Numbered from the stretch's first letter, positions 860-47,785 are shown. The stretch: 58,419 nucleotides of DNA from a virus (IMGVR_UViG_3300024346_000069:1-58419); one strand, 5' to 3'. Translations and numbers: made by a program. Notes: a model not told the origin generated them from the letters alone.

Positions 860-1486
860 TTATGCTGGTAATTCTTCTTCATTTTCCTCACCTTCTTCAT
901 CTTCTTGACCTTGTGCTTGACCTTGTGGTTGAGCTTGACCTTGTGCTTGTGGTTGAGCTTGACCTTGTGATTGTGGTTGACCTTGTGATTGTGGTTGAGC
1001 TTGTGGTTGAGCTTGTGGCTCTTCAAATTCACCTTCTTGTGCTTGACCTTGTGGTTGAGCTTGTGGTTGAGCTTGTGGTTGAGCTTGTGGTTGAGCCTGA
1101 GGTTGAGCTTGTGGTTCAGATTGAGTATCAACTTGAACTTGACCACCTTGAACTTGTCCCTGAGCTTGTCCTTGAGCACCACCCATAAGTGCATTTCCTG
1201 GGATTTTTTCTAAATCTAAACCAGTTAAAGTAATATATTTTAATAATTCTTCAGCTATTTCAACATCTCCAAAAAATTGACGAAGATTTTTTCCAGTCGA
1301 ATCTTTAACTTTCTTAACATAAGAATTAATAAGCGATTGAGGAATATCAACCATAGATCTAACTTTATAAGTATCACCTACTTGTAAAACAGATTCTTTA
1401 ATAGCATCAATAAGAGCATTTTCATTAACTTTTGATAATTCAACTTTTAAACTCTTATATGATTCAAATGTTCTAACGTATTTCAT
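860..1486 (-). CDS. Leader-bearing protein with Gln/Pro/Ala repeat tail
   Basis: 208 residues. The N-terminus MKYVRTFESYKSLKVELSKV carries the shared capsid-leader motif. Residues about 10-100 look like a small globular helical domain (GDTYKVRSMVDIPQ, NSYVKKVKDSTGKNLRQFF). From about residue 104 to 190 the protein is a tandem low-complexity tail built of PQAQ, GQAQ and PQSQGQ units, ending in a very acidic stretch (EDEEGEENEEELPA). The leader suggests a prohead core or internal head protein; a repetitive flexible tail with an acidic end would fit scaffold-like or DNA-contacting roles, but this is inference. A late-type promoter with a 24-base leader is upstream and a terminator directly downstream. 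The long open frames in other phases here are by-products of the 12-base repeat. Confidence 0.8.
   Translation of the reverse strand: MKYVRTFESYKSLKVELSKVNENALIDAIKESVLQVGDTYKVRSMVDIPQSLINSYVKKVKDSTGKNLRQFFGDVEIAEELLKYITLTGLDLEKIPGNALMGGAQGQAQGQVQGGQVQVDTQSEPQAQPQAQPQAQPQAQPQAQPQGQAQEGEFEEPQAQPQAQPQSQGQPQSQGQAQPQAQGQAQPQGQAQGQEDEEGEENEEELPA
895..1165. repeat. Tandem 12-bp and related repeats encoding PQAQ units
   Basis: Imperfect copies of GCTTGTGGTTGA and close variants run through the 3' part of gene 860-1486. The units code in frame for Gln-Ala-Gln-Pro type repeats, so changes in copy number would lengthen or shorten the tail without breaking the frame. Confidence 0.85.
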
Positions 1487-3000: not shown

Positions 3001-3031
3001 AAAAAAGTCACTCTATTGAGTGACTTTTTAT
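3001..3031. terminator. Bidirectional terminator between clpS and terL
   Basis: Stem AAGTCACTC / GAGTGACTT with a TATT loop, flanked by an A-run and a T-run. Serves the converging genes clpS (+) and the C-terminal terminase gene (-). Confidence 0.88.
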
Positions 3032-3034
3032 TTA

Positions 3035-5263
3035 TTATTTATTCTGTCCAAACCAATTAATATTATTATTCCAATTTGGTTTTGGTCTATTCATGAATTG
3101 TCTCCTAGCTCTTAAAATTTGACCATAATCTAAACTCTCAACAAAGTCGGATTCATTCATACATTTATTAATATAATCCATAAATGTTTTATCATTATTT
3201 CCAAAATCTTCTACAAACTCTTTAAATTCTGGTTTACTAAAAATACTAGTCATGTTTACAAGTGTCATCACCGTATCATCATTACCACTACCATCAGCAG
3301 CATATCTAATATTACCAGAAGAAGTGACATGTTTAACAAAAGTAGTTATTTCTCTAGCATTATCCTCATTTGTTATAAATATACCACCTGTTTGCATTAA
3401 ATCTTGATAATCTTTAACCATCATATTTTTATTATCACCAACTTTTAATCCTATCTTCTCCTCATTTGAATCTATTCTATGTTTATATCTGACAAAAACA
3501 GATGAACCATAATTATTATTACCATCAAATACATGTGGCATCTCTGCTAATAAAGTGTTACCATAATTATTTAATTCCAATACCACCTTAACATTTTCTG
3601 GATTAAAGTATTCAAAAACTATTAAATATAATAACTCAGCCAATTGTTTAACCGAAATAAAGTTATTTCTATAAATTCCGATTTGTTCTAACCTAAAAAA
3701 ATCGACTATTGATTTATATTTAAATCTTTGTTCTTCAATTAGTTCAATAGGCTTCTTAGAAACTTTAAATATGTTAATGATTGAATAATCCTGACCAAGT
3801 CCCTCTGATATATCGACCGATATTACAATTTTATAATCTTTTCGATTGATCGGAATATAAGTATCATCACAATCAATCCATTTTAAATCACCATAGTTGA
3901 ATTTTAATCTCTTAAACTCATCCAATTCTTCATAGATATAATTCTTTTTAGATTTTAATATCTCATCTATTATTTCTTCTGATAATAAGGATCTACTTCC
4001 ATTTATAAATCTTAAATCATATTCCTGATTAAAAGCATCTTCACCGCCAATATCTTTGACAGCCTCATCCTTCCATGTCGTTATTTCTGATATAGCCAAT
4101 ATGGAATTCCACCTACCATCTTTATCTTCAAATTGTAAACTCTTAACATCTTCTTGAGAACATTTATCATTATTATAAATATGTATAACATCCTTTTGTT
4201 GATCTAAATTAAAACTCATATCAACTTTTGTAACATCACCCCAATTCTCTTTAACCAAATTAAAAATATAATCAGGCTTAACTCCAAACTCATACATTTT
4301 ATGAGCATTTAATCTTATATAAGTAACAAAACGACCAGGAACTTGATACCAATAAACTCTCATAGGTTTATAGTTGTTTCTCTGTGGATCACCATCCGGT
4401 CTTTCAGCATCTGTTAATAACTTATGAAATAAATTCATACCATTTGGTGTGGATGTTATAATAATTTTAGAGTTTTGAACAGCTGATACGGTTGGAAAAG
4501 CAGCAGTATAGTAAGGCTCTATAATATTAGATGGAATATGCGCAAACTCATCTAAGTAAAGTAAATCAATAGTAAATCCGATTGCCGGTGTCTTTGTTCT
4601 TGCTGACGTTTTAATTCTACACCCATTTTCAAATGTTAATGATTTTTGATTCCATGTTTTAACACCCGGTTTTAAAAAGAATGGGAGTAGAGTATAAATT
4701 GATTTTACTTTATCAACAATCTCAACAGCAGTATCACCTTTATTGGCAACGATCATGACGTTTTTATCATTATTGAAAAGTATAGTATGTAATATGAAAA
4801 TTGCAGATGATACAGTATTATGTGATAATATACCATTTGTATAAAATCGATGATCTGGATGATCCACAGTCATATCAAACATGGATGATTTAAACCTCTT
4901 CAATTTGATCATCATAACTCTTTGTAAACCAGATTGAGTCTGTATATAATCACCAACTTTTAAATCCTTTACAAAAACCTCATCAAAATTATGATTAAAC
5001 ACAATATGATTATCAGCACAATATAAATCAAAATCTTTAGTTTTTAAATACCAATGTCTATATGGTTGTGTTACATGAATATCAGTAACTGGTTGAAATC
5101 CAGAATCAGTCATAACTCTTAAATTATCAACTGATATAGTATTAATTATTTTTTTATTTATATCATTCTCATCTAATTTCAATTTTCTATATTCAATTAA
5201 TTCAATTAATTCAATTAATTTATATAAAATTGATATTATTGTTATTTTAAAAAATTTAAACAT
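3035..5263 (-). CDS. terL: Large terminase, C-terminal part with C-intein
   Basis: 742 residues. Residues 1-149 are a C-terminal split-intein half: a head rich in I, L, E and K, then VMTDSGFQPVTDI, a block-B-like DLYCADNH, LKVGDYI, block F (VDHPDHRFYTNGI) and the terminal LSHN. Splicing after Asn149 leaves Thr150 as the +1 residue, which supplies the T of the Walker A motif GKT. The C-extein (150-742) has Walker B (LLYLDEF), the coupling motif (IIITSTPNG) and an RNase H-like nuclease with VISVDIS, VVLELNN and GNDDT. Together with 6281-6811 it gives a spliced terminase of about 714 residues that packages DNA by ATP hydrolysis. The ATG overlaps the end of the endonuclease gene by 8 bases, so translation may be coupled. 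Confidence 0.93.
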   Translation of the reverse strand: MFKFFKITIISILYKLIELIELIEYRKLKLDENDINKKIINTISVDNLRVMTDSGFQPVTDIHVTQPYRHWYLKTKDFDLYCADNHIVFNHNFDEVFVKDLKVGDYIQTQSGLQRVMMIKLKRFKSSMFDMTVDHPDHRFYTNGILSHNTVSSAIFILHTILFNNDKNVMIVANKGDTAVEIVDKVKSIYTLLPFFLKPGVKTWNQKSLTFENGCRIKTSARTKTPAIGFTIDLLYLDEFAHIPSNIIEPYYTAAFPTVSAVQNSKIIITSTPNGMNLFHKLLTDAERPDGDPQRNNYKPMRVYWYQVPGRFVTYIRLNAHKMYEFGVKPDYIFNLVKENWGDVTKVDMSFNLDQQKDVIHIYNNDKCSQEDVKSLQFEDKDGRWNSILAISEITTWKDEAVKDIGGEDAFNQEYDLRFINGSRSLLSEEIIDEILKSKKNYIYEELDEFKRLKFNYGDLKWIDCDDTYIPINRKDYKIVISVDISEGLGQDYSIINIFKVSKKPIELIEEQRFKYKSIVDFFRLEQIGIYRNNFISVKQLAELLYLIVFEYFNPENVKVVLELNNYGNTLLAEMPHVFDGNNNYGSSVFVRYKHRIDSNEEKIGLKVGDNKNMMVKDYQDLMQTGGIFITNEDNAREITTFVKHVTSSGNIRYAADGSGNDDTVMTLVNMTSIFSKPEFKEFVEDFGNNDKTFMDYINKCMNESDFVESLDYGQILRARRQFMNRPKPNWNNNINWFGQNK
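5198..5222. repeat. Triple 9-bp repeat in the C-intein head
   Basis: About three copies of AATTCAATT-type sequence in a row. They encode the LIELIELIEY stretch near the start of the C-intein, so slippage would change the length of this head helix in 3-residue steps. Confidence 0.7.
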
Positions 5264-6224
5264 TTTTATTTTTAATTTTTATTATATAATTTACTAATCG
5301 AAGCACAATCAGTTCTTTATTTTTAATATAATCTGATTCCGAAACATGTAAAACACTATAACCAGAATTAACAATATCGAGATCTCTTTTAATTTCTCTT
5401 CTTTTATTTTCTGGAGTATTTCTGTGATAATATGTACCGTCAAATTCTATTATCAACTTTAGACTTGGTATAAAAAAGTCGGGAAGTATATATGATTTTT
5501 CTAACTTAAGCCTATACTCATAATTTCTATTTTCGTTGTGAATATTATTATCTTTATCCAATCTAGCAAAATAAACTTTATCATAAAATCCAATACTCTT
5601 TAACTCTTCATAAAGAGATATAAATAACTCCTGACTTATTTTACTATAATTAACTTTTTTATAACTATTTAACCATTTTCTCTGTCTTTCCATCCAAATA
5701 AAATTACCCTTTTCCTCACCCCACTTCTCAATACACTTTTCTAATGTGAATGTCCTCTGTCTATCACTTAACATAATTTTAGACTCTTCCTCACTATATC
5801 CCCTATTTAAATAATATTGTATCGTTGTATCAGAAATCCTATCCTTTATTGATGTTTTAACAAATTCACTTATGTGATTTTCAACATTACAAACACCTCT
5901 ATAATTTATAAACTCTTTTGAAAAAGGACTTCTACTCTTTCTTTCAATTTCCGTTGTATTATCTTTGTGATTTGGATTCTTATTACCTTTTATTTTTTCT
6001 GAAAACATCTTTTTATATTTCTCATCCTTCATATGCTTACCACTATTAATTGTAGTTTTTTTTAAATCAGACAAAGCCATTATTGGTGCCCCAGGATAAA
6101 GTTTTTTATATTCTTCAGTTGTCATATTATTATGTGCGAATTTTAAATGTTTTCCATATACTCTTTTACATTGCTCACCACATATTCTACAAGTTACCGT
6201 TTCATTATTATCATTAATTATCAT
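5256..6224 (-). CDS. Homing endonuclease, C2H2 finger plus Vsr-like nuclease
   Basis: 322 residues. The N-terminus holds a C2H2-type finger (Cys12, Cys15, His26, His31) followed by MTTEEYKKLYPGAP, the Ros/MucR-like region common in phage homing endonucleases. The C-terminal quarter has the Vsr/EDxHD nuclease core IIEFDGTYYH (about 257-266) followed by a lysine/arginine-rich helix and GYSVLHVSESDY. It sits between the two terminase halves, the fractured-gene arrangement known for split inteins in environmental phage sequences, where a Vsr-like endonuclease spreads the broken allele. It has its own late-type element upstream (6245-6254). It probably cuts the intact terminase allele at or near the P-loop codons; the target is inferred. 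Confidence 0.88.
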   Translation of the reverse strand: MIINDNNETVTCRICGEQCKRVYGKHLKFAHNNMTTEEYKKLYPGAPIMALSDLKKTTINSGKHMKDEKYKKMFSEKIKGNKNPNHKDNTTEIERKSRSPFSKEFINYRGVCNVENHISEFVKTSIKDRISDTTIQYYLNRGYSEEESKIMLSDRQRTFTLEKCIEKWGEEKGNFIWMERQRKWLNSYKKVNYSKISQELFISLYEELKSIGFYDKVYFARLDKDNNIHNENRNYEYRLKLEKSYILPDFFIPSLKLIIEFDGTYYHRNTPENKRREIKRDLDIVNSGYSVLHVSESDYIKNKELIVLRLVNYIIKIKNKNV

Positions 6225-6244
6225 AAATAAAATTTATTTTTATT

Positions 6245-6254
6245 TATATATTAA
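6245..6254 (-). promoter_or_regulatory. Late-type promoter element for the endonuclease
   Basis: Exact TTAATATATA on the minus strand, 20 bases before the endonuclease ATG and inside the short gap between the two halves of the fractured gene. Confidence 0.55.
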
Positions 6255-6280
6255 GTATTTACGGCTTCCCAACAAATCGG

Positions 6281-6811
6281 TTATATGTTTTCAATATAGA
6301 ATATAAAATCATATAACTTTATCTTTATTTTTTCAAGAAGTGTTAAACTTCTTTCTTTAGAAATCATATAATAATATAGTTTACCAACTCTTATATCTAT
6401 TATTTGATTATCTCTTTCAATACTACAAAGAGTATTGAATGTAAAACACTTACCCACCTGTCTACTAGCCATTAAGATATTAAATCTATTTTGAACAAAA
6501 TTATCTAATATTTCTTCTTGATAATCACGTAGTCTAATTTCACCAACACTACCGTCCTCTCTTTTAGTTTTACAATATTGTTCAGTAAAGTAGTGTATAT
6601 CAATAGCACATCTAATATACTCCTGTTGCTCATCAGGACTCATTCTAAATGAAACACCAGATCTTTTAATACCAACTTCTCCCTTCAACCAGGGATTTTG
6701 ATATCTTTTAAGAACAATACCATCATTTATCTTATCAGTAGCTTCATCAACGAGTTTAGTCGTAAAGACCATTTGTCTTTCTTCTTCTTCATCGTGCTTT
6801 TGTTTTGCCAT
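6281..6811 (-). CDS. terL: Large terminase, N-terminal part with N-intein
   Basis: 176 residues. Residues 1-121 are the N-extein: an acidic start, WLKGEVGIKR, then a T4 gp17-like region (LRDYQEEILDNF) and the first part of Walker A, MASRQVGK. The intein begins at Cys122 (CFTFNTLCSIE), so the break lies exactly within the P-loop. The N-intein is only 55 residues and lacks the block-B TxxH motif, which lies in the other half; the split is therefore atypically close to the N-terminus, as in the terminase intein AceL-TerL. Its end is lysine-rich (LEKIKIKL), which could pair with the C-intein head. Without trans-splicing this protein has no ATPase site. Confidence 0.93.
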   Translation of the reverse strand: MAKQKHDEEEERQMVFTTKLVDEATDKINDGIVLKRYQNPWLKGEVGIKRSGVSFRMSPDEQQEYIRCAIDIHYFTEQYCKTKREDGSVGEIRLRDYQEEILDNFVQNRFNILMASRQVGKCFTFNTLCSIERDNQIIDIRVGKLYYYMISKERSLTLLEKIKIKLYDFIFYIENI

Positions 6812-9860: not shown

Positions 9861-12800
9861 TTACATAAATCCACCAGCATCAATTGCTCCAGTTCTAAGG
9901 ATTGTAACATTGTTAACAATGATACCCATACCCTTAATTGGTTCAACATAAGTATCTAAAACACCGATTTGGTTATCTATTATTTCTGATGTATTATTTT
10001 CATCATCCATTTTGTTGAAATAGTTATATAAACCGTTTCTATTTACATATGTTTCACAGATTGAATCAGCTCTAAGTTTAATTTCAGCTCTGATATCTGG
10101 TGTGTTATACTGCCATTGGAAATCTAATAACATTCTCGATAACTCTCTTTCTAATTCGATTAACACCTCTCTTACGTGAATGAAAGAAAGAGCTGATCTT
10201 TGAAGAGTTTGAGCTGTGTTTTCAGTTTCAATAACATGACCTCTATTTCTTTTGAATACAATAGGGTTCATTTGAGCTTGATTTAAGAATTCAATATCCT
10301 CATTTGTATAATCATGCTCTAATCCGATGATATTAGTAATTCTACCATTAGTAACACCAGCTGCGATTGTCCAAGGAGTGATTCCACCTAAGTTAGATGT
10401 ATGTTTTCTCATATATGTTGTCGCAACGTGTGCTGCTGGTGGCATAGTAACTTGTCTACCATCATCATCAACTTTGATATAAGGTGTAAAGTAACCAACA
10501 CAAGTACTTCCTTCACCATCAGCGAATGTATAAGTAAATGCTGCTGCCTTATCAGGATTTGAACCTTTAGCGATATATTCAGCAACTAAATCACCATTAC
10601 CATCAACATATGTTGGAGAAGTTGAAGATTTAAACGATCTAATAGATGGCATATTTAAGAATCCAAATATGTCTTTTCTAGATCCACAGATATCAGCTAA
10701 TTGTTGTTTAGATCTTTCTCCTAAACCAAGTCCAAAAGAATCCACTAAATATCTATAATCTATAGCTTCTTTGTTTGTTAAAGCTCTATATAAAGGAGTT
10801 CCTTTAGCAACAATATTTAAGATATCTTCTTGTGTTTTTTCAGTACCATCTGGTAAAGATTCTGTTCTAACTTTAAATCCTTTGAAAGTTAAAGCTTTAT
10901 ATGCGTATGTATAATTATCAACTGATTTATATAAGAAAGTCTGGAAATCATTTCCGGTTCCATTAGCTCCGATTTTATTTCTTCTAACTGGTAGAGAACA
11001 TGTAATCATCACTAAAGAACTATCTTTTGAGTAAACTCTCTTATCTAAAACTCTAGAAAGTCTGTTGTTAGTTCCTAATAGGAAATCACCAACTTTAATT
11101 TCAGAATATCTATCACCTTTAACTAATACTTTATTATCAAGTAACCAAGTACCATCCACATTATCAATCAAATCTGTATCTTTAGATGAACCAATTACAA
11201 AAGTTCCATTTGAATCATAAGTAGCTGGATATTCCAATTCTAAAGTTTGTTTATAATTAGAACTTTGAGAAATAATATTAAATTTGGTCAAAGAATCTAA
11301 ATTAGATAAAGGTGGCATCGCAACTAGTGATGAATAACCATCTCTAAATCTAATACTTAAAGCATTTTTAATAAAAGTATTAGATTCTTTCTTATCTTGT
11401 ACAAACATACTTAAAAAGTATGTGCCAATTCCAGGTCTATTATCAATTATGTTTTTAACACCATATATCTTCTCATAAACTACTTCTTCAACAACTTTAT
11501 AAATATATGTTTTAATCTGTTTATTATTTATATCATTTGATGATTCTAAAGTAGTACCATCAGCTTTTGTAAAAAGAGTAGCCGAGTTAACACTAGAAGA
11601 AATTAAGTTATCACTTACAATAGTAATTTTTCTTCTATTTAAAGTAGAATTAGTTATTGTAATACCATCTCCAATATTAAATTTAATTTCATTAGTAGTA
11701 TCTGATGTAGCACCACTACCCGGATTTGGAAATGATGCTGTAAACATAATAAAGTTATAGCCAGCAAATAAACTAGTTTTACCAGTATTTAAACCTGTAA
11801 TAGTTTTATCATCCTCACCATCAAAGAAAGTAACGGTGTACCCACCACCTTCACTATAAACTTTACTAGGAACTCTATTAACTTGGAAATAATCACCATT
11901 ATTAATAATACCATCATAGTAGTCCTGATATAATTGAGAGTATTTAGAAACAACACCAATACCATCACCAAGTAATGGATTGACTTCAGTAACACTGTTA
12001 GTAACACCAACCATTTTTGTATCCATACCATTTCTTCCTAAAATTACCTCATCATCAACTGAATATATTGTCAAGAATCCTTGTAATACTTTTTGCCAAT
12101 CCAATTTAACTATCTCAGAGTTTGGTAAACCAGTATTTAATACAAAAGATTTATTTTGAGTTGGAGATGTTACAATATCAGATATTGACATGTTTTCCAT
12201 ACTCACTTTTCTGTTTTGTGACTCGCTATCCAATAACATAACTCTCTTATATTTATCAGAGCTATCCAATAAATTAACTAATTTATCAAACATTCTATGT
12301 CTTCTATAAACTCTATAGTTTGCTGGATTTTTAGCATTGTCAGTACCTAAGAAAGTATATTTAATTTTACCATCACCTAAATAAGAAACTTTATAATCAA
12401 ATAAATCATTTGATGATTTTTCTAAAGTATATCCATTAACAGTACTTAAATCAGATAAAATCTTTTCAATACCTGCTTGAGTTAATTTAAATCCAAATTG
12501 TCCACTACTAAATGTTCCCGACATACCAGTTGGCTTTTGTCCATAAAATGAAGCCGTAGAACATAACCAAACAGATTGAGTACCCGGAATTTGAAGAGAT
12601 GTAAAATTTGTACCAGGAGTTACACTAGCAGAATTTACAGTAATTTTAGCAGTTGTTTGTAATGTTGCAGATGCAGTAGCTGCAAACTCAACAGTAACAT
12701 TTAAACTCCAAGTAACACCACCCTGAGGTAAAGTTGCAATTACATTAGAAGCTGTAAATATCTGAGTTGATGGACCACCACTAACACCACTTAGTAAATT

Positions 12801-15437
12801 AGGAGTAGTTGCTTTATCATAAAAATTAGTCGTCGATGATAAGAATGAGTCTGGCCCAAATGATGACGAATTCACTCCTGTCTTCAAAGCCCACTTATTC
12901 TCACTCTTAAATGAATTGAAAATATAATTAGAACCGTCAAAATTAGTTAAGAAATATATTCTTTTAGCATCATAATCTACTCTATCAATAATTAATAAAA
13001 TAGGAGTTACACTATTACTAGAACTATTAAATGTGTATGGATTTGATGTTGATATATCTTTAGATCCACCAGAAACTGACCAAACAGATATAGAATCTCC
13101 ACTATTTAATCTAATTGCTGGATTAATAGAAACTGATTTAAAATCAACAAATAATTGTTCAGTGATTGAGTCCCACTGGAAATTACAAGTACCAACATCA
13201 CCACTAGAAGCAGTTGCAAAAACTGGATAAAGACTTGAATAATTCCATCTATCAACATTTGAATATGTTAGAATTCTAGCATCATTTACAAACCCAGTTC
13301 TAGAAAAATAATTTCCAGATCCAGTACCACCAGTAAATAATTGGTTACCAGATGCACCAATAGGTGCTGATGTATCGTCATCTAAATAAAGTTTATTAAC
13401 ACTATTCTTATAGAAAGTTCTAATATAGTCACTATTATCATGTAATAATGGATTAGAAAGATCTTCATTCGCCGATAAAAATGAAGTATCAACACTCACA
13501 TATTCTACGTTAAGATAAGAATCTGATGTTACTGGATTACCAATAGTGTTTAACCAAGGAGCTAAACCACCAACAAATGTAGCTTTTGAATAGTTATTGG
13601 AAGTAAGTAAACCATTTTGTATAACACCAATAGAACCATTCCATTTGTTATATCCATAATAACCACCAATAAGGTTTGGTGAGAACCTACCTTCAATATC
13701 AACACCATTTAAATTATACTTTTGATATGATCCAAAAGGAACAAATATATTAGAATTGTTAAAATTATTTGATTTAACTCTGAATTTAAATGTGTTTAAT
13801 ACAATATCATTTGCTGAAACTCCAATAACGTCACCACCATCTTTATTAACAATAATGTCAATTGTTTTAGTATCATATTTATAGACAACAGCAGCTAAAC
13901 ATAATTGTATATAATTTCTTATCTCAAAATCACCAGATTTTATTGAGAAAGATATAGATCTATAACTACCACTAGCAGTAGCACTAGTATTTAAAACAGG
14001 TAAACTTTCACCATTTATAACAGCATATGCACTGTTATGAATATCATAACTAATTATAATATCGGTAAATGTATCAATTGTATTAGTAATAGATTCAGAT
14101 AATTTATCATCTACAGATTTCGATATTCCCGCTACCGCAACTGATTTATATTTGATACCCCAAGTTGTAAAATCAGCAAACCAAGAAGTTCTATTTTTAA
14201 AGTTCTTTTGAACTCCAGAGTAAGTAGGAGCACCATTTATAGTAGGATAAAAATGCGCTTGATTTGAAAGAGGTTTAGCTATACTATATGAAAATCCAGT
14301 ACTTGGAGAAACCCTAGTATCCAAATCAAATCCTATACCTAATGATGTAGATCCAGTTAAACCACCTAAATTGGCAGTAACGTTACCTGGTAAATCCAAC
14401 GGTTTAGTCATAACTGGAACTTCCTCAGAAATATTAGCCTGATATGATAAGAAATTAATAACAGTCTCATTCTTATTAGCAATTGTATGACCAACTAAAT
14501 CAATAAGTGAACTAACATTTTCATTCTCAACAGCATCTATGTTAAATGCACAAAAGATTCCTGTTTTATCAGTATCAGCATTAAGATTTGTCTCAATAAA
14601 TAAATTTTTATTCTCTTTATTTCTAAAATAAGGAATTAAAGAAAGTCCACTGTAATATCCTAATACATTAACATTTCTATTATTTGCAAAATCAACAACA
14701 AGATTTTTTCTTAAACCAGAACCTAATTTTGGATCAAAAAAGAAATAGTTGCTCCAAATTTTATCCTGAGCCAAAGATCTATAATTAGACCAATCACCAG
14801 AAACAATAAGTACATCAACCATATAATCCGAGATAAAATCTTTAGGATTAATAAAAGCTGGTACCTTTTCAACAGAACCAAACCATGATTCCGCAGTAAT
14901 ATCATAATTACCAACTGTTGACTTATAGATAAAAACAGAAACTGGTTTATCTGATAAGTTAGTAATGTTTAAAGCTCTTGATGCAAATCCAGGATTTGAT
15001 CTTGTAAAATTAATAAATGATTCAGGATCTTTTTTCCAGAAACCAGTAGTATCATGGAATTTTCTAAAAGCTCCCAATCTTTTAACATCATTTAAATTAT
15101 CAGATGATGTAGATAATGATTGATATTCAACTCTATCTAAAACATCGTCTGTTAATAATAAATTCATTGCATAAACTGGTGAACTTTCTAACATTTTTTC
15201 GATAGTTCTATGAAAGAAAGAACCCTTTCTCTCCAAATTTCTATCAATTTCACCATAAATAGCTCTAAACTCATTAAGAGTGCTAACTTTAACTGGTGCA
15301 TTCACAGGTCCCTTTTTCGAAACACCGATAACCATATTAACCAAAGGGTCAACAGACGTAGGTGTAGGAATAACGGATTTATCATATTCCTCGATAAATA
15401 TGCCTGGTCTTTTGTATTTTCCAATTTGAATTGCCAT
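9861..15437 (-). CDS. Giant contractile tail sheath protein (T4 gp18-like)
   Basis: 1858 residues, almost three times T4 gp18 (659). The N-terminus (KRPGIFIEEYD, then VIGVSKKGPVNAPVKV and a YGEIDRNL segment) and the C-terminal third (about 1520-1858: GTPLYRALTNKEAIDYRYLVDSFG, GGITPWTIAAGVTNGRI, a long arm LSFIHVREVLIELERELSRM and the final RTGAID) carry the conserved sheath core that forms the mesh of interlocking strands. Between about residues 230 and 1520 lies a huge Ser/Thr/Asn/Gly-rich beta insertion, presumably domains that decorate the outside of the tail. The reading frame is continuous and codon use is even. Preceded by a late-type AT element and followed by a terminator. Assignment as sheath is strong; the role of the insertion is unknown. 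Confidence 0.92.
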   Translation of the reverse strand: MAIQIGKYKRPGIFIEEYDKSVIPTPTSVDPLVNMVIGVSKKGPVNAPVKVSTLNEFRAIYGEIDRNLERKGSFFHRTIEKMLESSPVYAMNLLLTDDVLDRVEYQSLSTSSDNLNDVKRLGAFRKFHDTTGFWKKDPESFINFTRSNPGFASRALNITNLSDKPVSVFIYKSTVGNYDITAESWFGSVEKVPAFINPKDFISDYMVDVLIVSGDWSNYRSLAQDKIWSNYFFFDPKLGSGLRKNLVVDFANNRNVNVLGYYSGLSLIPYFRNKENKNLFIETNLNADTDKTGIFCAFNIDAVENENVSSLIDLVGHTIANKNETVINFLSYQANISEEVPVMTKPLDLPGNVTANLGGLTGSTSLGIGFDLDTRVSPSTGFSYSIAKPLSNQAHFYPTINGAPTYSGVQKNFKNRTSWFADFTTWGIKYKSVAVAGISKSVDDKLSESITNTIDTFTDIIISYDIHNSAYAVINGESLPVLNTSATASGSYRSISFSIKSGDFEIRNYIQLCLAAVVYKYDTKTIDIIVNKDGGDVIGVSANDIVLNTFKFRVKSNNFNNSNIFVPFGSYQKYNLNGVDIEGRFSPNLIGGYYGYNKWNGSIGVIQNGLLTSNNYSKATFVGGLAPWLNTIGNPVTSDSYLNVEYVSVDTSFLSANEDLSNPLLHDNSDYIRTFYKNSVNKLYLDDDTSAPIGASGNQLFTGGTGSGNYFSRTGFVNDARILTYSNVDRWNYSSLYPVFATASSGDVGTCNFQWDSITEQLFVDFKSVSINPAIRLNSGDSISVWSVSGGSKDISTSNPYTFNSSSNSVTPILLIIDRVDYDAKRIYFLTNFDGSNYIFNSFKSENKWALKTGVNSSSFGPDSFLSSTTNFYDKATTPNLLSGVSGGPSTQIFTASNVIATLPQGGVTWSLNVTVEFAATASATLQTTAKITVNSASVTPGTNFTSLQIPGTQSVWLCSTASFYGQKPTGMSGTFSSGQFGFKLTQAGIEKILSDLSTVNGYTLEKSSNDLFDYKVSYLGDGKIKYTFLGTDNAKNPANYRVYRRHRMFDKLVNLLDSSDKYKRVMLLDSESQNRKVSMENMSISDIVTSPTQNKSFVLNTGLPNSEIVKLDWQKVLQGFLTIYSVDDEVILGRNGMDTKMVGVTNSVTEVNPLLGDGIGVVSKYSQLYQDYYDGIINNGDYFQVNRVPSKVYSEGGGYTVTFFDGEDDKTITGLNTGKTSLFAGYNFIMFTASFPNPGSGATSDTTNEIKFNIGDGITITNSTLNRRKITIVSDNLISSSVNSATLFTKADGTTLESSNDINNKQIKTYIYKVVEEVVYEKIYGVKNIIDNRPGIGTYFLSMFVQDKKESNTFIKNALSIRFRDGYSSLVAMPPLSNLDSLTKFNIISQSSNYKQTLELEYPATYDSNGTFVIGSSKDTDLIDNVDGTWLLDNKVLVKGDRYSEIKVGDFLLGTNNRLSRVLDKRVYSKDSSLVMITCSLPVRRNKIGANGTGNDFQTFLYKSVDNYTYAYKALTFKGFKVRTESLPDGTEKTQEDILNIVAKGTPLYRALTNKEAIDYRYLVDSFGLGLGERSKQQLADICGSRKDIFGFLNMPSIRSFKSSTSPTYVDGNGDLVAEYIAKGSNPDKAAAFTYTFADGEGSTCVGYFTPYIKVDDDGRQVTMPPAAHVATTYMRKHTSNLGGITPWTIAAGVTNGRITNIIGLEHDYTNEDIEFLNQAQMNPIVFKRNRGHVIETENTAQTLQRSALSFIHVREVLIELERELSRMLLDFQWQYNTPDIRAEIKLRADSICETYVNRNGLYNYFNKMDDENNTSEIIDNQIGVLDTYVEPIKGMGIIVNNVTILRTGAIDAGGFM

Positions 15438-20892: not shown

Positions 20893-21270
20893 ATGATTCT
20901 CACTAGAGAAATAAATATAAAAATTAATATAAATAATTTAAATTATTTCACGGATCTTGGATACGAAACATCTATAGGTGAGGTAATTGTTATACCACCT
21001 GAATTACTTTCTAAAGGATCTCATTTCAAAATAAAATGTAAATGTGACTCTTGTGGTGTCGAAAAAAATATAATCTATAAAAACTATTTACTCTACGATA
21101 ACGAAAAATGGGGAGACTACCTATGTAGAAAGTGTTCCGAACCAAAGAGAAAAAAATCATTAAGAGAGTCATTTGGTGTTGATTACCCCATACAAAATGA
21201 TAATGTAATGAATAAAATGAAAAAGACCTTAAATAATAAGAAAGACAAAAACAATAAAGGAAATGGCTAA
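20893..21270 (+). CDS. Truncated homing-endonuclease-like protein with Cys motifs
   Basis: 125 residues. CKCDSCG and YLCRKCSEP form two Cys pairs (probable zinc finger), followed by KKSLRESFGVDYPIQNDNVMNKMKKT, a pattern repeated in phage endonuclease-like proteins where units of the type GVD-x-P-x-Q/S-x-x-x-V-x-x-K-x-K-x-T precede a nuclease domain. The protein stops just after this unit in a Lys/Asn tail, with no nuclease domain, so I read it as the remaining N-terminal part of a homing endonuclease. It overlaps the start of the RNase R gene by 8 bases. Confidence 0.65.
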   Translation: MILTREINIKININNLNYFTDLGYETSIGEVIVIPPELLSKGSHFKIKCKCDSCGVEKNIIYKNYLLYDNEKWGDYLCRKCSEPKRKKSLRESFGVDYPIQNDNVMNKMKKTLNNKKDKNNKGNG

Positions 21271-41224: not shown

Positions 41225-44200
41225 CTATTTACCTTTTTCACTCAACTTTTTAAAGATAAAGTCATCAAATGTTGAACCAGGTGAGAATAGACTATTTAAA
41301 TTATATAGTAACTTAACAATCATATCTAATTTAACTTCTTCTGGACTCTTTTTAGGTTTTCCAAAAGCAGTAGCTTTTTTAGTATTAACACCAGATGAAA
41401 CACTAGCTCCCTGACTTCCTAAAATTTTAGAAAGTGCTGTTGATTTTGATTCTAAAACTTTAAGAACATTATCAAGTGACTTAGAATCAACTCCGGATAA
41501 AGTAGTAATATTAGCAGTTAGCGTATTCAATTGTCTTAATTTAGCAGTATCGATGTTTTTAATTGAACTTGTAAACTTACTTAAAGATTTTGATAGTTTA
41601 TCAAAAGATTTTGACATTTTCACAATACCATCAGTTATATTATTTATAGTCTTATTATTCATCGAGCTAGATATCAAACCAGACTTTTGAGCCTGATTAA
41701 CCTTCTTTAACATATCAACATAATCAAGTATATTACTTGACATTTTTTTAACATAATTTCCAGGAATACCCACAGCGAAGTTTCTATAATTATCTCTAAA
41801 TTTCTTAGATACTCTGATTATTTCATTAACTAATGTATCTAATGAAGATTTACCAAAACTAATAGTTTTAACACTATCTCTAAGTTTTACAAAATCTTTG
41901 ATATTAGTAATCATCGATTTTAAAGATTTATCAGAAGCGTTATTATATTTAATACCATTCATAGAAGTGGCGGTACTTTTCATAGACGATACTAATCTCT
42001 TTAAATTAGAAATTTTAATGAAATCAAATAATGATGTCAATCCAAGAATCTTCTTAAACATTTTAAATGCAAAATAAGTACCATTTGACCAATCCTTACT
42101 AGGATAATTAGTAAAATTAGTTTGATTAAATATATTAGAAACTTTCTTAATAGTTTTTGCTACGGATTCAATAGAAGAAGTATAATCTTCAACATCAAAC
42201 GAATCAAATAAACCACCACCTTTTAACATTTTATAAATTGGTGAGAAAGCTTCGATAGCAGATGAAACACCACTTGCCCATTCAGCAGTAGGACCATTAA
42301 CATATACACCAGGATTTTCAGCAAATACCTTAGCCGCACTAACTATACCAGTAGATATAGAAACTATAGCATCAACGAAATCCTCAGTATCAGGTGCTGA
42401 TTTAAACCAACTAGCACTATCTGATAACATCTTATAAACTGGTGAAAACGCACCAACCGCAGCTGAAACGCCAGCAGCCCATTCACTAGTTGGACCATTA
42501 ACATAAACACCTGGACTACCAGCAAATGCATTAGCAGATTCAATTATACCCTTTGATATAGCAACTATAGCATCAACGAAATCCCCAGTATCAGGTGCTG
42601 ATTTAAACCAACTAGCACTATCCGATAACATCTTATAAACTGGTGAAAATGCTTCAACAGCAGCTGAAACACCAGCAGCCCATTCTTTAGTTGGTCCGTT
42701 AACATAAACACCTGGACTACCAGCAAATATGTTAGCTGACTCAATTATAGCAGTTGATATAGAAGATATTGCTCCAACAAAATCCTTTACCTTAGGAGCT
42801 GATTTAAACCAACTAGCACTATCTGATAACATCTTATAAACTGGCGAAAATGCTTCAACAGCAGCTGAAACACCAGCAGCCCATTCACTAGTCGGACCAT
42901 TAACATAAACACTCGGATTACCCGCAAATATAGAAGCTGCCTTAGTTATACCAGTCGCAATTGCTTCAATTGCTCCCGAAAATTTATCAATATCAGGTGC
43001 TGAACTAAGCCATCTAGAACTATCCGCTAACATCTTATAAATTGGTGAGAAAGCTTCTAATGATTTTGAAACTCCTTCTGCCCACTCTTTAGTTGGTCCA
43101 TTTGTATAAACACCAGGAGATGATGCTAAAACTGAAGCAGCTTTGGATATACCAGTTGCAATAGCTTCAATCGCACCCGAAAATGCTTCAACTGTTGGTG
43201 GATCTTCAAACCAACCATCACTATTAGCCAACATCTTATAAATTGGAGAGAATGCCTTTAATGCCTTTGTCACACCAGTTGCCCACTCTGGTGTAGGACC
43301 ATTTGTATAAACACCTGGTGATGATGCGAGAACCGAGGCAGCTCTTGATATACCAGTTGCTATCGATTCAATAGCACCCGCAAAAGATTCAACTGTTGGT
43401 GGATCTTCAAACCAACCATCACTATCAGCCAACATTTTATAAATTGGAGAAAAAGCCTTTAACGATTTAGAAACTCCTTCTGCCCATTCAACAGTTGGAC
43501 CATTTGTATAAACACCAGGAGATGATGCTAAAACTGAAGCAGCTTTAGATATACCAGTCGCAATAGCTTCAATAGCACCTGCAAAAGCTTCAACTGTTGG
43601 TGGATCTTCAAACCAACCATCACTATCAGCTAACATTTTATAAATTGGAGAGAAAGCCTTTAAAGCAGTCGAAACTCCAGATGCCCATTCCTGTGTAGGA
43701 CCATTTGTATAAACACCTGGTGATGATGCAAGAACCGAAGCAGCTTTAGATATACCAGTCGCGATAGCTTCAATCGCACCCGAAAATGCTTCAATTGTTG
43801 GACCGGAACTAAACCAACCATCACTATCAGCCAACATTTTATAAATTGGAGAGAATGCCTTTAAAGCAGTTGAAACACCAGAAGCCCACTCTTCAGTTGG
43901 ACCATTTGTATAAACACCTGGTGATGATGCAAGTGTAGAAGCAGCAACACCAATACCAATAGCTATAGTTTCAATAGCATTTGAGAAATCATCGATTGAT
44001 GGACCGGAACTAAACCAACCATCTTCATCACTAAGCATTTTATAAATTGGTGAAAATGCTTTTAAAGCACTCGAAACACCATCAGCCCATTCAACAGTAG
44101 GGCCATTTGTATAAATATCTTGACCAGACAAAGCTCTGGCAGCAACCCCAATACCTGTTGCAATTGCCTCAATAGCCCCAGAGAAATCTTCAATTGATGG

Positions 44201-47200
44201 ACCGGAACTAAACCAACCATCACTATCAGCTAACATTTTATAAATTGGTGAAAACGCCTTTAAAGAACTAGAAACACCATCAGCCCATTCAACAGTAGGA
44301 CCGTTTTTATAAATATCTTGACCTGATAATGTTCTTGCAGCAACCCCAATACCTGTTGCAATTGCCTCAATAGCCCCAGAGAAATCTTCAATTGATGGAC
44401 CCGCGTTAAACCAATCATCACTATCAGCTAACATCTGATAAATTGGTGAAAATGCCTTTAATGCAGAAGAAATACCAGCAGCCCATTCTTTCGTTGGACC
44501 GTTTTTATAAACTTCTTGATTTGATAAAGATTTCGACGCAATCTCAATACCACTAGCAATGGTTTTAATTGCTTTTGCAAAATCTTCAACAGAAGGACCA
44601 GAAATAAACCAACCATTACTATCCGATAAAATCTCATAAACCGGCATAAAAGCACCCAAAGCAGCAGCAACTCCCTTAGACCACTCAACAGTTGGCCCTT
44701 TATTCCACTGACCTTTTGAAAGAATTTTATCAACTTTAACGATTGTTTCAGCAATTGTTTCAATTGCCGATAAACCAATACCCAGTGCCAATCTACCCAA
44801 TCCAAGTGTAGCCATTATAGCAGTACCAAGTGCCAACGCAGGGAGACCAAATGCCGTAGCCGCTAATCCAACAGAACCAGTCCAACTAGGAGATGGATAA
44901 ACACCATAATTACCTTTACCAAGTATTTTAGAAACATTTACGATTGTTTCGGCAACCGCTTCAATTGCGGACAAACCAATACCCAGTGCCAATCTACCTA
45001 ATCCAAGCGTAGTCATTATAGCAATACCTAATTCTAATGCAGGAAGTCCAAAAGCAGTCGCAGCTAACCCAACAGATGCAGTCCAAGTAACAGTAGGATA
45101 TTTACTATAATTACCCTTACCAAATATTTTAGAAACCTCCACAATTGTTTCAGCAATTGATTCAATAGAGCTAAGTCCTAAACTTAAAGCAATTGCTCCT
45201 AATCCAAGTGTACCCAAAATTGCAACACCAAGTGCCAACGCAGGAAGTCCAAACGCAGTCGCAGCTAATCCAACAGATGCTGTCCAAGCAACAGTTGGAT
45301 ACTTATCATACTTACCAGCAGCTAAAATATAAGAGGTTGCAACTATTGTAGCCGCAATTAAAAGAATACCAGTTAATCCAGCTTCTAAAGCTAACATACC
45401 CAGACCAAATGTTCCTAAAATTGCAACACCAAGTGCCAAAGCCCCTAATCCAAATCCAGTACCTACTAAACCAACAGATGTGATCCATCCAAATGTAGGA
45501 TACTTATCATACTTACCTGCGGCTAAAATATAAGAGGTTGCAACTATTGTAGTAGCAATTAAAAGAATACCACTCAATCCAGCCTCTAACGCAACATAAC
45601 CAAGTCCTAAAGTTCCAAGTATCGCAACACCTAAACCTAAAGCAGCAATTCCAAATAAAGAACCAATCAAAGCAACACCAGTTGCCCATCCAATTGTAGG
45701 ATATTTATCATACACACCAGCGGCTAAAATAAAAGAGACAGCTGATATACCAACAGCAATTGTCAAAATTGAACCCAAACCAATAAGTAATGCTGCATAT
45801 CCAGCACCACCAGTTAGACCTATCAAAGTACCTAAAGCTAAAGCACCAATTCCAAAAGCTAATAAAGATGCTGAAACACCAATTGACCAACCCAAACCTG
45901 GATAACTATCATATTTACCAACAGATAATATTAGTGATGTTAACATAATAACAGTTGCAATAGCAACTATTATTAAACCACCCTTAACAATATCAGAAAT
46001 TTTTAAATTAAGTCTATTTAAAATCTTCATAGCAATAGCTACTAAAACTATTGATACTGATAAAGTAAGACTGAAAAGTAATAATCTAAGTGCTTTACCA
46101 GCAGGTATATCAGCAGCCAAATTTAAAATTTGTGATGATAACATTATCGCTAATGAAATTGCGGTATAAAGTATTGGTATCTTCCAAACATCTTTCATAT
46201 TGAAATTTCTAATAGCTCTACCCATCAATTTAATCGCAAATGAACAAACAATAAATATTGCAGATATTGCCAATGAAGTTAAAAATTGAGTCATGGTAAT
46301 AGGTTTAACCATACTTAATAACCAAGAAGAAGCTAAAATAGCCAATGAAAAAGAAGTAAATAAAACCGGTATTAATGGAATCATTGCCGGATTAATTCTC
46401 GAAATGGACCTAGCCATTATTTTAATAGCAAATGAAAATGCTATAAAAATTATTGATATACCCAATGCTGTTAAAAATTGAGGAAAACCAACAGGAACAA
46501 CCATCGATAATGCCCATGATGACAACATAACCGCGATAGAAATAGCCGTTAATAATATAGGCATTATAAAAGCAGCAGCGAGTGCATCTACAGGATTTAT
46601 ATCCTGAAAAGCACTTAATAATTTATTTATTCCGAAACTAATGACCGCAAACATACCAGCAATTAATATCGCAGTAATAGCTTTTCCAAAGCTAACCGGT
46701 TTAATTAATCCTAAAACATAAGAAGATAACATTATAGCAACAGAAACCGCCAATAAAAGAAGTGGCAATACTAAAGATGCTTGAAAAACTTTACTCAAAC
46801 CAATTTCACTTTTAGATAAAGCATCTAACGTTCTACCTAAAGCAGGTAAAGCAATAGCAAACATACCAGAAATTAATAGAGATGTTATTATTTGACCAAT
46901 ACTCATAGGTCTAACACCAGCCAACACTCTAGATGCTAACATAATACCTAATGACATAGTAAACATCAATATAGGTAGAAAAACCGCAGTTGCTATCAAC
47001 TTACCAACATTAAGCTTCTTTGTTTTTATTTTAGTACCATTTGGCAATGTTAGCGTAATAGGATTCATCATAGAATCCATAATATCCATCATAACTGGCA
47101 TCACAAAATAAAATAATCCAGCAACAGCAACACTCGTTAAAAATTGAGGTATTGTGATAGGAGAAACCATTGATAAAAACCAAGATGAAACCATAATACC

Positions 47201-47785
47201 ACCAGCCATAATAACCATCAAAAGAGAAGTTTGAATGGCTTGTTTAGGCTCAATATTCATCTTAGCAATTCTTTCAAATGCAAGTGCAATTAAAAATATA
47301 CCAGCACTAAGAGCAATAACAGATAAGAAATTAACACCACCAATCAATTTAAAAGCCGCTCCGATAGCTAAGACCGCAACAGCAATTAATAATATAGTAG
47401 CAATTCCCTTCTTAATACCACTTTGATTTTTCTCATTTGTAGTATCAATTGGATTTTTATCACGTTTACTCTTAATTTCAGTTTGTATTCCCTGTAATAT
47501 ATTACCCTGTTTTCTAATTAAATCTGTTTGAACATCTAACTTTTTAGAATTCTCTTTAGTCATTTCTAAGATAGTATCTTGTTTAACAGAAACTTCAGAA
47601 ACACTCTCCTTTAATTCATCTATACCAACTTTTATCTCACTTATAACCTTGAAAAAATCACCACCAGACAGAGCCTTGGCAACATCAGATTTAGCAGAAG
47701 CCCCGTCTTTAAGAGATTCAGCTATTTGTTCCAACGCAAATGATAGATTACTTAAAGCTTCCAATAAACGAACATCCATATCCAT
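41225..47785 (-). CDS. Tape measure protein, 67-residue modular
   Basis: 2186 residues. The N-terminus (1-120) is a helical/coiled region. Then follow about 6 hydrophobic units of about 68 residues (each with a [S/L]S-x-x-L-x-x-x-x-P-x-x-x-x-x-x-x-T signature), about 6 hydrophobic units of 67 residues marked Y-x-x-x-P-T-x-x-W, and about 13 soluble units of 66-67 residues with the same Y-x-x-G-P-T-x-x-W-x-x-G-V signature (KAFSPIYKMLADSDGWF as a typical core), ending with a polar helical tail. Position and length fit the tail-length ruler that is ejected into the cell on infection; the hydrophobic part would form a membrane channel. At 1.5 angstrom per residue it predicts a tail near 330 nm, which is an inference. 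Confidence 0.9.
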   Translation of the reverse strand: MDMDVRLLEALSNLSFALEQIAESLKDGASAKSDVAKALSGGDFFKVISEIKVGIDELKESVSEVSVKQDTILEMTKENSKKLDVQTDLIRKQGNILQGIQTEIKSKRDKNPIDTTNEKNQSGIKKGIATILLIAVAVLAIGAAFKLIGGVNFLSVIALSAGIFLIALAFERIAKMNIEPKQAIQTSLLMVIMAGGIMVSSWFLSMVSPITIPQFLTSVAVAGLFYFVMPVMMDIMDSMMNPITLTLPNGTKIKTKKLNVGKLIATAVFLPILMFTMSLGIMLASRVLAGVRPMSIGQIITSLLISGMFAIALPALGRTLDALSKSEIGLSKVFQASLVLPLLLLAVSVAIMLSSYVLGLIKPVSFGKAITAILIAGMFAVISFGINKLLSAFQDINPVDALAAAFIMPILLTAISIAVMLSSWALSMVVPVGFPQFLTALGISIIFIAFSFAIKIMARSISRINPAMIPLIPVLFTSFSLAILASSWLLSMVKPITMTQFLTSLAISAIFIVCSFAIKLMGRAIRNFNMKDVWKIPILYTAISLAIMLSSQILNLAADIPAGKALRLLLFSLTLSVSIVLVAIAMKILNRLNLKISDIVKGGLIIVAIATVIMLTSLILSVGKYDSYPGLGWSIGVSASLLAFGIGALALGTLIGLTGGAGYAALLIGLGSILTIAVGISAVSFILAAGVYDKYPTIGWATGVALIGSLFGIAALGLGVAILGTLGLGYVALEAGLSGILLIATTIVATSYILAAGKYDKYPTFGWITSVGLVGTGFGLGALALGVAILGTFGLGMLALEAGLTGILLIAATIVATSYILAAGKYDKYPTVAWTASVGLAATAFGLPALALGVAILGTLGLGAIALSLGLSSIESIAETIVEVSKIFGKGNYSKYPTVTWTASVGLAATAFGLPALELGIAIMTTLGLGRLALGIGLSAIEAVAETIVNVSKILGKGNYGVYPSPSWTGSVGLAATAFGLPALALGTAIMATLGLGRLALGIGLSAIETIAETIVKVDKILSKGQWNKGPTVEWSKGVAAALGAFMPVYEILSDSNGWFISGPSVEDFAKAIKTIASGIEIASKSLSNQEVYKNGPTKEWAAGISSALKAFSPIYQMLADSDDWFNAGPSIEDFSGAIEAIATGIGVAARTLSGQDIYKNGPTVEWADGVSSSLKAFSPIYKMLADSDGWFSSGPSIEDFSGAIEAIATGIGVAARALSGQDIYTNGPTVEWADGVSSALKAFSPIYKMLSDEDGWFSSGPSIDDFSNAIETIAIGIGVAASTLASSPGVYTNGPTEEWASGVSTALKAFSPIYKMLADSDGWFSSGPTIEAFSGAIEAIATGISKAASVLASSPGVYTNGPTQEWASGVSTALKAFSPIYKMLADSDGWFEDPPTVEAFAGAIEAIATGISKAASVLASSPGVYTNGPTVEWAEGVSKSLKAFSPIYKMLADSDGWFEDPPTVESFAGAIESIATGISRAASVLASSPGVYTNGPTPEWATGVTKALKAFSPIYKMLANSDGWFEDPPTVEAFSGAIEAIATGISKAASVLASSPGVYTNGPTKEWAEGVSKSLEAFSPIYKMLADSSRWLSSAPDIDKFSGAIEAIATGITKAASIFAGNPSVYVNGPTSEWAAGVSAAVEAFSPVYKMLSDSASWFKSAPKVKDFVGAISSISTAIIESANIFAGSPGVYVNGPTKEWAAGVSAAVEAFSPVYKMLSDSASWFKSAPDTGDFVDAIVAISKGIIESANAFAGSPGVYVNGPTSEWAAGVSAAVGAFSPVYKMLSDSASWFKSAPDTEDFVDAIVSISTGIVSAAKVFAENPGVYVNGPTAEWASGVSSAIEAFSPIYKMLKGGGLFDSFDVEDYTSSIESVAKTIKKVSNIFNQTNFTNYPSKDWSNGTYFAFKMFKKILGLTSLFDFIKISNLKRLVSSMKSTATSMNGIKYNNASDKSLKSMITNIKDFVKLRDSVKTISFGKSSLDTLVNEIIRVSKKFRDNYRNFAVGIPGNYVKKMSSNILDYVDMLKKVNQAQKSGLISSSMNNKTINNITDGIVKMSKSFDKLSKSLSKFTSSIKNIDTAKLRQLNTLTANITTLSGVDSKSLDNVLKVLESKSTALSKILGSQGASVSSGVNTKKATAFGKPKKSPEEVKLDMIVKLLYNLNSLFSPGSTFDDFIFKKLSEKGK
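42070..44706 (-). repeat. About 13 tandem 200-bp repeats in the tape measure gene
   Basis: In-frame copies of a roughly 201-base unit encoding the soluble module Y-x-x-G-P-T-x-x-W-A-x-G-V...; middle copies (43000-43950) are nearly identical, both outer ends more diverged, and the last copy is degenerate. Such arrays are prone to unequal recombination. Confidence 0.88.

What the first reader, a model, noticed from the sequence alone, without database searches (positions are those of the whole stretch)
3035..6811. Fractured terminase gene: trans-splicing needed to make the ATPase P-loop
Seen: the N-part gene ends its extein with SRQVGK and begins an intein at Cys; the C-part gene begins with an intein half that ends in LSHN followed by T. 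Joined, they read SRQVGK-T, the terminase Walker A motif. The two halves are separate genes with a Vsr-like endonuclease gene between them. Known: fractured genes with split inteins and Vsr-type endonucleases, including atypically split terminase inteins of the AceL-TerL kind, come from environmental phage sequences. Consequence (inferred): DNA packaging is switched on only after two translated proteins find each other and splice.
Basis: partly seen in the sequence, partly recalled or inferred. Interest (0 to 1): 0.9.

Follow-up and report, generated by a model that had tools for sequence, protein, structure and literature searches.

The report
Phage packaging motor split by intein
In this uncultured phage the gene for the DNA-packaging motor is cut in two inside its ATP-binding site by a mobile element, a split intein with a homing endonuclease gene between its halves, so the two proteins must splice together to make the motor; such fractured genes are a known kind, but this version has unusual helical extensions on both intein halves and belongs to a large, previously scattered family.

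Summary
Confirmed. On the minus strand, TerL-N+IntN (6811-6281), a Vsr/DUF559-like endonuclease (6224-5256) and IntC+TerL-C (5263-3035) form a fractured terminase. The joined exteins (121+593=714 aa) rebuild SRQVGK|T and align without a gap across T4 gp17's Walker A. The element is a clean 1632-bp insertion: relative L003, with flanks 90-93% identical in DNA, has the empty site. IntC carries the class-1 splicing residues, and its predicted fold matches the atypically split inteins VidaL and Cat. The same split gene occurs in more than 40 other contigs, so it is not an artefact. The element is mobile: some near-identical copies sit in highly diverged terminases. The endonuclease has been lost repeatedly while the split stayed. 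Differences from AceL/GOS-TerL: Thr at +1, IntN 55 aa (published range 15-37), IntC 149 aa, and conserved helices on both halves that meet at the break; one contiguous relative shows them as a hairpin. Relatives go further: a 735-kb phage has its halves 12.5 kb apart, and the cultured Salicola phage SCTP-2 has TerL in three unlinked genes. Dependence of packaging on splicing is likely. A regulatory 'switch' has no evidence, and the patchy distribution fits a selfish element.

The parts
6449..6811 (-). TerL N-extein, 121 aa, ends ...SRQVGK (Walker A up to Lys)
   Evidence: (PHROG terminase 4e-16)
6284..6448 (-). IntN, 55 aa: Cys1 and about 30 aa core, then a conserved 25-aa tail (6284-6358, ...SLTLLEKIKIKLYDFIFYIENI); stop codon 6281-6283
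5256..6224 (-). Homing endonuclease gene, 322 aa: MucR-like zinc finger, NUMOD3-like GNKNPNH, C-terminal DUF559/MTES_1575/Vsr-like nuclease with D249, E260, H267 invariant in 27 homologues
5256..5263 (-). 8-bp overlap of HEG stop with the ATG of the C-part gene (translational coupling likely, inferred)
   Evidence: tight HEG/IntC junctions in relatives
5141..5263 (-). IntC head, 41 aa, predicted long helix (residues 2-24) plus linker, conserved across relatives
4817..5140 (-). IntC core, 108 aa, HINT fold: block B CADNH, block F DHPDHRFYTNG, block G ILSHN
3035..4816 (-). TerL C-extein, 593 aa plus stop, starts Thr+1 (Walker A Thr), rest of ATPase and RNase H-like nuclease
3002..3029 (.). Terminator-like hairpin just downstream of the C-part gene; no terminator-like site found on the minus strand between the halves

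Best explanation
The terL gene of a T4-type (gp17-like) phage has been invaded, between the Lys and Thr codons of Walker A, by a 1632-bp mobile element: a class-1 intein that is itself broken into two genes, with a free-standing Vsr/DUF559-like homing endonuclease gene in the break. The three genes lie in one apparent operon. TerL-N+IntN and IntC+TerL-C are made separately. IntC is nearly a whole HINT domain; IntN supplies the first strands and the nucleophile Cys1. The halves associate, helped (inferred) by a helix at the end of IntN and one at the start of IntC that meet at the break. Cys1, then Thr+1, then cyclisation of the final Asn join SRQVGK to T and give one 714-aa terminase. The endonuclease (inferred) cuts the intact P-loop codons of uninvaded terL copies in mixed infection, so the element is copied in. 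Shown: sequences, empty site, conserved splicing residues and fold, recurrence, horizontal transfer, repeated loss of the endonuclease with retention of the split. Inferred: splicing itself, cutting, helix docking.
For: Coordinates and reading frames. Exact empty site in L003 and many other uninterrupted relatives. IntC relatives in the PDB are intein CatC (2e-9) and VidaL (7e-9); AF2 model pLDDT 85, Foldseek top hits VidaL 6vgv 1.7e-9 and Cat 6dsl 1.7e-6. Block B Ala-Asp-x-His and the terminal Asn are invariant in 45 IntC sequences; block F His and penultimate His are at least 90% conserved. Cys1 is invariant in the 14 aligned IntN. Joined exteins match gp17 through Walker A. Purifying selection on IntC core (dN/dS 0.08-0.31) and endonuclease (0.10-0.22); element dS 0.15-0.2 between L005 and L023 where N-extein dS is saturated = horizontal transfer. 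Endonuclease remnants fused to IntN in L111 and in front of IntC in L140; endonuclease-less splits with 2-344 nt between the halves.
Against: No biochemical proof of splicing for this intein. The contig is a fragment, so a second terL cannot be ruled out. The helix-docking role rests on conservation and a predicted model; helical hydrophobic moments of the two helices are not clearly above shuffled sequence (P 0.05-0.45). The IntC head evolves faster (dN/dS 0.25-0.68).
Confidence: 0.9

Rival explanations
1. The insert is removed at RNA level by a self-splicing intron (as shown for terL of phage ICP1), and the intein-like ends are incidental.
For: ICP1 terL is joined by RNA splicing and has an endonuclease nearby (PMC10448857).
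Against: No Rfam intron family at E<=1 in the region. Both ends of the insert are translated in frame with the exteins and carry intein motifs and a HINT fold under purifying selection. In L057, L111, L120 and L121 only 2-13 nt separate the two genes, leaving no room for an intron.
Confidence: 0.03
2. The two pieces are not joined; they work as a non-covalent two-chain terminase, or the element is dead and an intact terL exists elsewhere.
For: The contig is incomplete. LR756501 and LR756500 carry a second TerL-like gene.
Against: The break lies inside the P-loop between Lys and Thr, and the extra ends keep the splicing residues. The extra TerL-like genes are only 390 and 270 aa and end before the nuclease domain. 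In SCTP-2, a phage grown in culture, the only TerL found is in pieces.
Confidence: 0.05
3. The fracture is a sequencing or assembly artefact (frameshift plus a misjoined endonuclease gene).
For: Metagenomic contig.
Against: Same gene order in more than 30 distinct assemblies, with conserved stop and start positions and endonuclease/IntC overlaps.
Confidence: 0.01
4. The split is a functional switch that times DNA packaging.
For: The assembly step necessarily delays TerL, and the HEG/IntC overlap could couple expression.
Against: Close relatives with 90-93% DNA identity do without it; transfer between diverged phages and repeated endonuclease loss fit selfish mobility.
Confidence: 0.06

Closest known systems
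AceL-TerL, GOS-TerL and consensus Cat split inteins
   Same: Terminase large subunit; atypical split near the N-terminus, with block B in IntC; IntC is a relative of CatC.
   Different: +1 Thr instead of Cys; IntN 55 vs 25-37 aa, IntC 149 vs 104-115 aa (PMC11766414); extra helix on each half; insertion in Walker A. A +1 Cys would fit a Walker B site as in SCTP-2 (inference).
VidaL intein (PDB 6vgv)
   Same: Closest solved structure by fold (1.7e-9) and among the closest by sequence; atypically split, Cys-dependent.
   Different: VidaL IntN is 16 aa, split after strand beta2 (PMC13014065); here the break lies after helix 1 at the tip of a helical insertion.
Fractured genes with Vsr-like endonucleases (Dassa et al. 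2009; paper not held, known from citations and memory)
   Same: Split intein halves in two genes with a free-standing endonuclease gene in the break.
   Different: Here with empty-site relatives, an antisense endonuclease variant, endonuclease-less and dispersed forms documented for one gene.
Contiguous TerL inteins of Ackermannviridae (Klebsiella phage Magnus, Salmonella phage Vi01)
   Same: Same intein core family in T4-type TerL; in Magnus and Vibrio phage VAP7 the same Walker A site (PMC6763660).
   Different: One gene, no break, no endonuclease in it, no helical hairpin.
ICP1 terL
   Same: Terminase gene broken by a mobile element with an endonuclease nearby.
   Different: Joined by RNA splicing (PMC10448857), not protein splicing.

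Membership tests
Class 1 intein (HINT domain) | Cys/Ser/Thr at position 1 and Cys/Ser/Thr at +1 | tested here: met
   Cys1, Thr+1
Class 1 intein (HINT domain) | Block B His, block F, penultimate His and terminal Asn | tested here: met
   CADNH, DHPDHRFYTNG, ILSHN; Ala-Asp, His and terminal Asn invariant in 45 IntC
Class 1 intein (HINT domain) | HINT fold | tested here: met
   AF2 pLDDT 85, Foldseek hits are inteins, E down to 1.7e-9
Class 1 intein (HINT domain) | Splicing activity | not testable with these tools
   needs co-expression
Atypically split intein | Break before block B, so IntN is short and IntC long | tested here: met
   55 / 149 aa, block B in IntC
Atypically split intein | IntN within the published 15-37 aa (descriptive range, not strictly defining) | tested here: not met
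   55 aa with conserved tail; range from PMC13014065
AceL/GOS-TerL subfamily | Cys at +1 | tested here: not met
   Thr+1; AceL, GOS, Cat have Cys+1 (PMC11766414)
Fractured gene | Two separate genes whose exteins together equal an uninterrupted orthologue | tested here: met
   L003 empty site; gp17 alignment
Fractured gene | Free-standing endonuclease gene in the break | tested here: met
   6224-5256 and relatives
Vsr-like / EDxHD homing endonuclease | Vsr-type nuclease domain with acidic and His catalytic residues | tested here: met
   DUF559 above its cut-off, MTES_1575 2e-5 (below its cut-off), vsr weak 0.002; D249, E260, H267 invariant
Vsr-like / EDxHD homing endonuclease | Cuts the empty site | not testable with these tools
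   needs cleavage assay
Group I/II intron | Intron RNA core | tested here: not met
   no Rfam hit at E<=1; 2-nt gaps in relatives

The most novel reading that the evidence does not exclude
Two readings not excluded: (1) the conserved IntN tail and IntC head form a helical hairpin, seen fused in the contiguous relative L122, that acts as a docking clamp at the break, a feature not described for the characterised split inteins I could read about; (2) in large phages the packaging motor is repeatedly assembled from unlinked genes by protein trans-splicing, with halves 12.5 kb apart in the 735-kb phage LR756501 and three pieces spread over about 213 kb, joined by two split inteins at Walker A and Walker B, in the cultured Salicola phage SCTP-2.
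Probability: 0.5. Interest if true: 0.75.

Novelty: new variant of a known kind. Interest (0 to 1): 0.6.

Why it matters
An essential motor whose ATP-binding loop exists only after two (or three) proteins splice is a strong natural case of obligate protein trans-splicing. The family offers empty, contiguous, fractured, endonuclease-free and dispersed states of one gene, so the order of events by which a selfish element breaks an essential gene can be read directly. It also offers long, helix-bearing split inteins with Cys1/Thr+1 as possible tools, and in SCTP-2 a culturable phage in which the question can be tested.

Tried and rejected
Group I/II intron: rejected (2-nt gaps). Sequencing artefact: rejected by recurrence. 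Klebsiella phage TTM-TASP117 looked split but has a run of N in a contiguous intein. Helix amphipathicity as support for docking: not clearly above shuffles. The endonuclease has no sequence match in the PDB. The Dassa 2009 paper is not held. My first idea that the TerL-like paralogues of LR756501/LR756500 are ATPase-dead was dropped: deviant P-loops exist in terminases (own knowledge); I only claim that they end before the nuclease domain.

Full report
WHAT IS THERE. The window is a 58.4-kb IMG/VR viral contig of a contractile-tailed phage: tail sheath, portal and tail tube are recognisable. On the minus strand three genes follow each other: TerL-N+IntN 6811-6281, an endonuclease gene 6224-5256, and IntC+TerL-C 5263-3035. 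The endonuclease stop overlaps the ATG of the C-part by 8 bp. A terminator-like hairpin lies at 3002-3029, past the C-part; none was found on the minus strand between the halves. The exteins joined (121+593 aa; 282 aa of them searched) match T4 gp17 in the PDB at 1e-42, with SRQVGK|T aligned gap-free to gp17's Walker A.

IT IS AN INSERTION. Relatives with an uninterrupted terL are common. The closest, L003, is 97.5% (N) and 100% (first 161 aa of C) identical in protein; the flanks are 93% and 90% identical in DNA, and the 1632-bp element is absent to the base. The nearest named phage records by TerL are 635-642 kb huge-phage genomes (71-74% identity over the C-extein), so the window may be a piece of a much larger genome (inference).

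IT IS A SPLIT INTEIN. IntC's best PDB matches are CatC (2.4e-9) and VidaL (7.3e-9), both atypically split inteins. AF2 on 45 homologues gives pLDDT 85: a helix at residues 2-24, then the HINT beta fold; Foldseek top hits are VidaL 1.7e-9 and Cat 1.7e-6. Cys1, block B Ala-Asp-x-His, block F His and the terminal Asn are kept across the family. The +1 residue is Thr, the Walker A Thr itself.

THE ENDONUCLEASE. 322 aa with a MucR-like zinc finger, a NUMOD3-like motif (my reading of GNKNPNH) and a C-terminal Vsr/DUF559/MTES_1575-type nuclease. D249, E260, G263 and H267 are invariant in 27 homologues from the same position. dN/dS is 0.10-0.22.

A LARGE FAMILY IN MANY STATES. One IntC profile scan found 234 encoding stretches in IMG/VR; the best 80 were fetched. 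Excluding exact duplicates, searches show about 33 loci with an in-line endonuclease (plus an archaeal MAG, L148), 3 with a different, antisense endonuclease (L072, L080, L081), 1 with a 666-aa protein (L118), 12 with no endonuclease and 2-344 nt between the halves, 1 (L142) with three ordinary phage genes between the halves (exonuclease, phosphoesterase, holin), and 2 contiguous (L122, L143); the rest are cut by contig ends. Several of these loci are close relatives of each other. On an IntC-core tree (weakly resolved, quick method) at least 16 changes of state are needed, and endonuclease-less forms sit next to endonuclease-bearing ones several times. L111's IntN runs into an endonuclease C-terminus (WELDWNKDPKQTLKKCIKFLND) and L140 has such a remnant in front of IntC, so there the endonuclease was lost while the split stayed. 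L069 has a broken endonuclease.

MOBILITY. Between L005 and L023 the element has dS 0.15-0.2 while N-extein dS is saturated and C-extein dS is about 2.5; L041/L068 and L094/L105 are similar. The element has moved between diverged phages. That, and empty sites in very close relatives, fits a homing element better than a conserved regulatory switch.

WHAT IS DIFFERENT. Published atypical IntN are 15-37 aa, split after strand beta2 (VidaL) or after helix 1 (AceL, GOS) (PMC13014065); AceL, GOS and Cat have Cys+1 and IntC of 104-115 aa (PMC11766414). Here IntN is 55 aa with a tail (LTLLEKIKIKLYDxLFxLE) and IntC 149 aa with a head (MFKFFKKxLIxxIxxLIELIEKYEYR), conserved in most split members, including LR756501 at about 40% identity. 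In L122, a contiguous relative, the same two stretches are fused and AF2 draws two helices (27-58 and 63-80) separated by a short turn. The break in the split forms falls at that turn. Contiguous relatives without the break (VAP7, Magnus, L143) and two other split ones (SCTP-2, L148) lack the helices. My reading is a docking module; conservation and model support it, amphipathicity does not clearly.

DISPERSED TERMINASES. In the 735-kb record LR756501 the N part (623874-624377, minus) and the C part (609304-611481, minus) are about 12.5 kb apart, with ordinary genes on both strands between them. Its IntC ends LN rather than HN, so its activity is less certain; a second TerL-like ORF of 390 aa ends before the nuclease domain. 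In Salicola phage SCTP-2 (MF360958, cultured) three genes already annotated 'terminase large subunit' are N-extein+IntN (gp534, 429356-429748 minus), IntC+middle+second IntN (gp267, 256428-257321 plus) and second IntC+rest (gp224, 215993-218077 minus); the second split is at Walker B (SISLLY|CDEFAF), and gp224 also contains a contiguous intein. No other TerL was found there. The Walker B pair is only weakly intein-like by sequence search (0.056), but has the expected first Cys and +1 Cys. Since SCTP-2 forms virions, its pieces most likely join (inference).

VERDICT. New variant of a known kind.

Noticed in passing
L156, L164, L165 (MF360958, Salicola phage SCTP-2): TerL encoded in three unlinked genes (gp534, gp267, gp224) with split inteins at Walker A and Walker B, plus a contiguous intein in gp224; a cultured phage.
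   Followed up: partly
L027, L031, L154 (LR756501, 735 kb): TerL halves of the same split-intein family about 12.5 kb apart; IntC ends in LN instead of HN.
   Followed up: partly
L032 (LR756501) and L153 2333-3145 (LR756500): Second TerL-like gene with SRQMGI(S/T) in place of SRQxGKT and no nuclease domain, in two huge phages that carry the split terL; in LR756500 it is next to it.
   Followed up: no
L153 3237-6825 (LR756500): Fractured terL with Vsr-like endonuclease; IntC ends in Gln (SSQ) instead of Asn.
   Followed up: no
L097 6983-10345 (and L096, L098-L100, L110, L119 by ORF length): C-part gene also carries a contiguous intein in the nuclease domain (CVLPNTLIK...VVHN|C), so a split and a contiguous intein share one terminase.
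   Followed up: no
L143 3367-6699: One TerL ORF with three contiguous inteins, at Walker A and around Walker B.
   Followed up: no
L072, L081 versus L005: IntN nearly identical to the L005 type but a different IntC and an antisense endonuclease: halves appear to be swapped by recombination.
   Followed up: partly
L148 (Nitrosarchaeum MAG JAHFUM010000005): Fractured TerL with endonuclease in an archaeal MAG contig, without the helix extensions.
   Followed up: no
window 5141-5263 and relatives: IntC head shows low dS together with raised dN/dS in most pairs; small counts, unexplained.
   Followed up: no
window 20893-21270: 125-aa zinc-ribbon protein beside the exoribonuclease-like gene, with endonuclease-like sequence; possibly the front of another homing endonuclease.
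   Followed up: no
window 9861-15437: Tail sheath protein of 1858 aa with the conserved sheath domain only in the last 350 residues.
   Followed up: no
window 860-1486 and 41225-47785: Proteins with strong internal repeats (QPQAQPQAQ; repeated YTNGPTxEWAxGVSxxLKAFSPIYKMLADSDGWF units in a 2186-aa protein).
   Followed up: no
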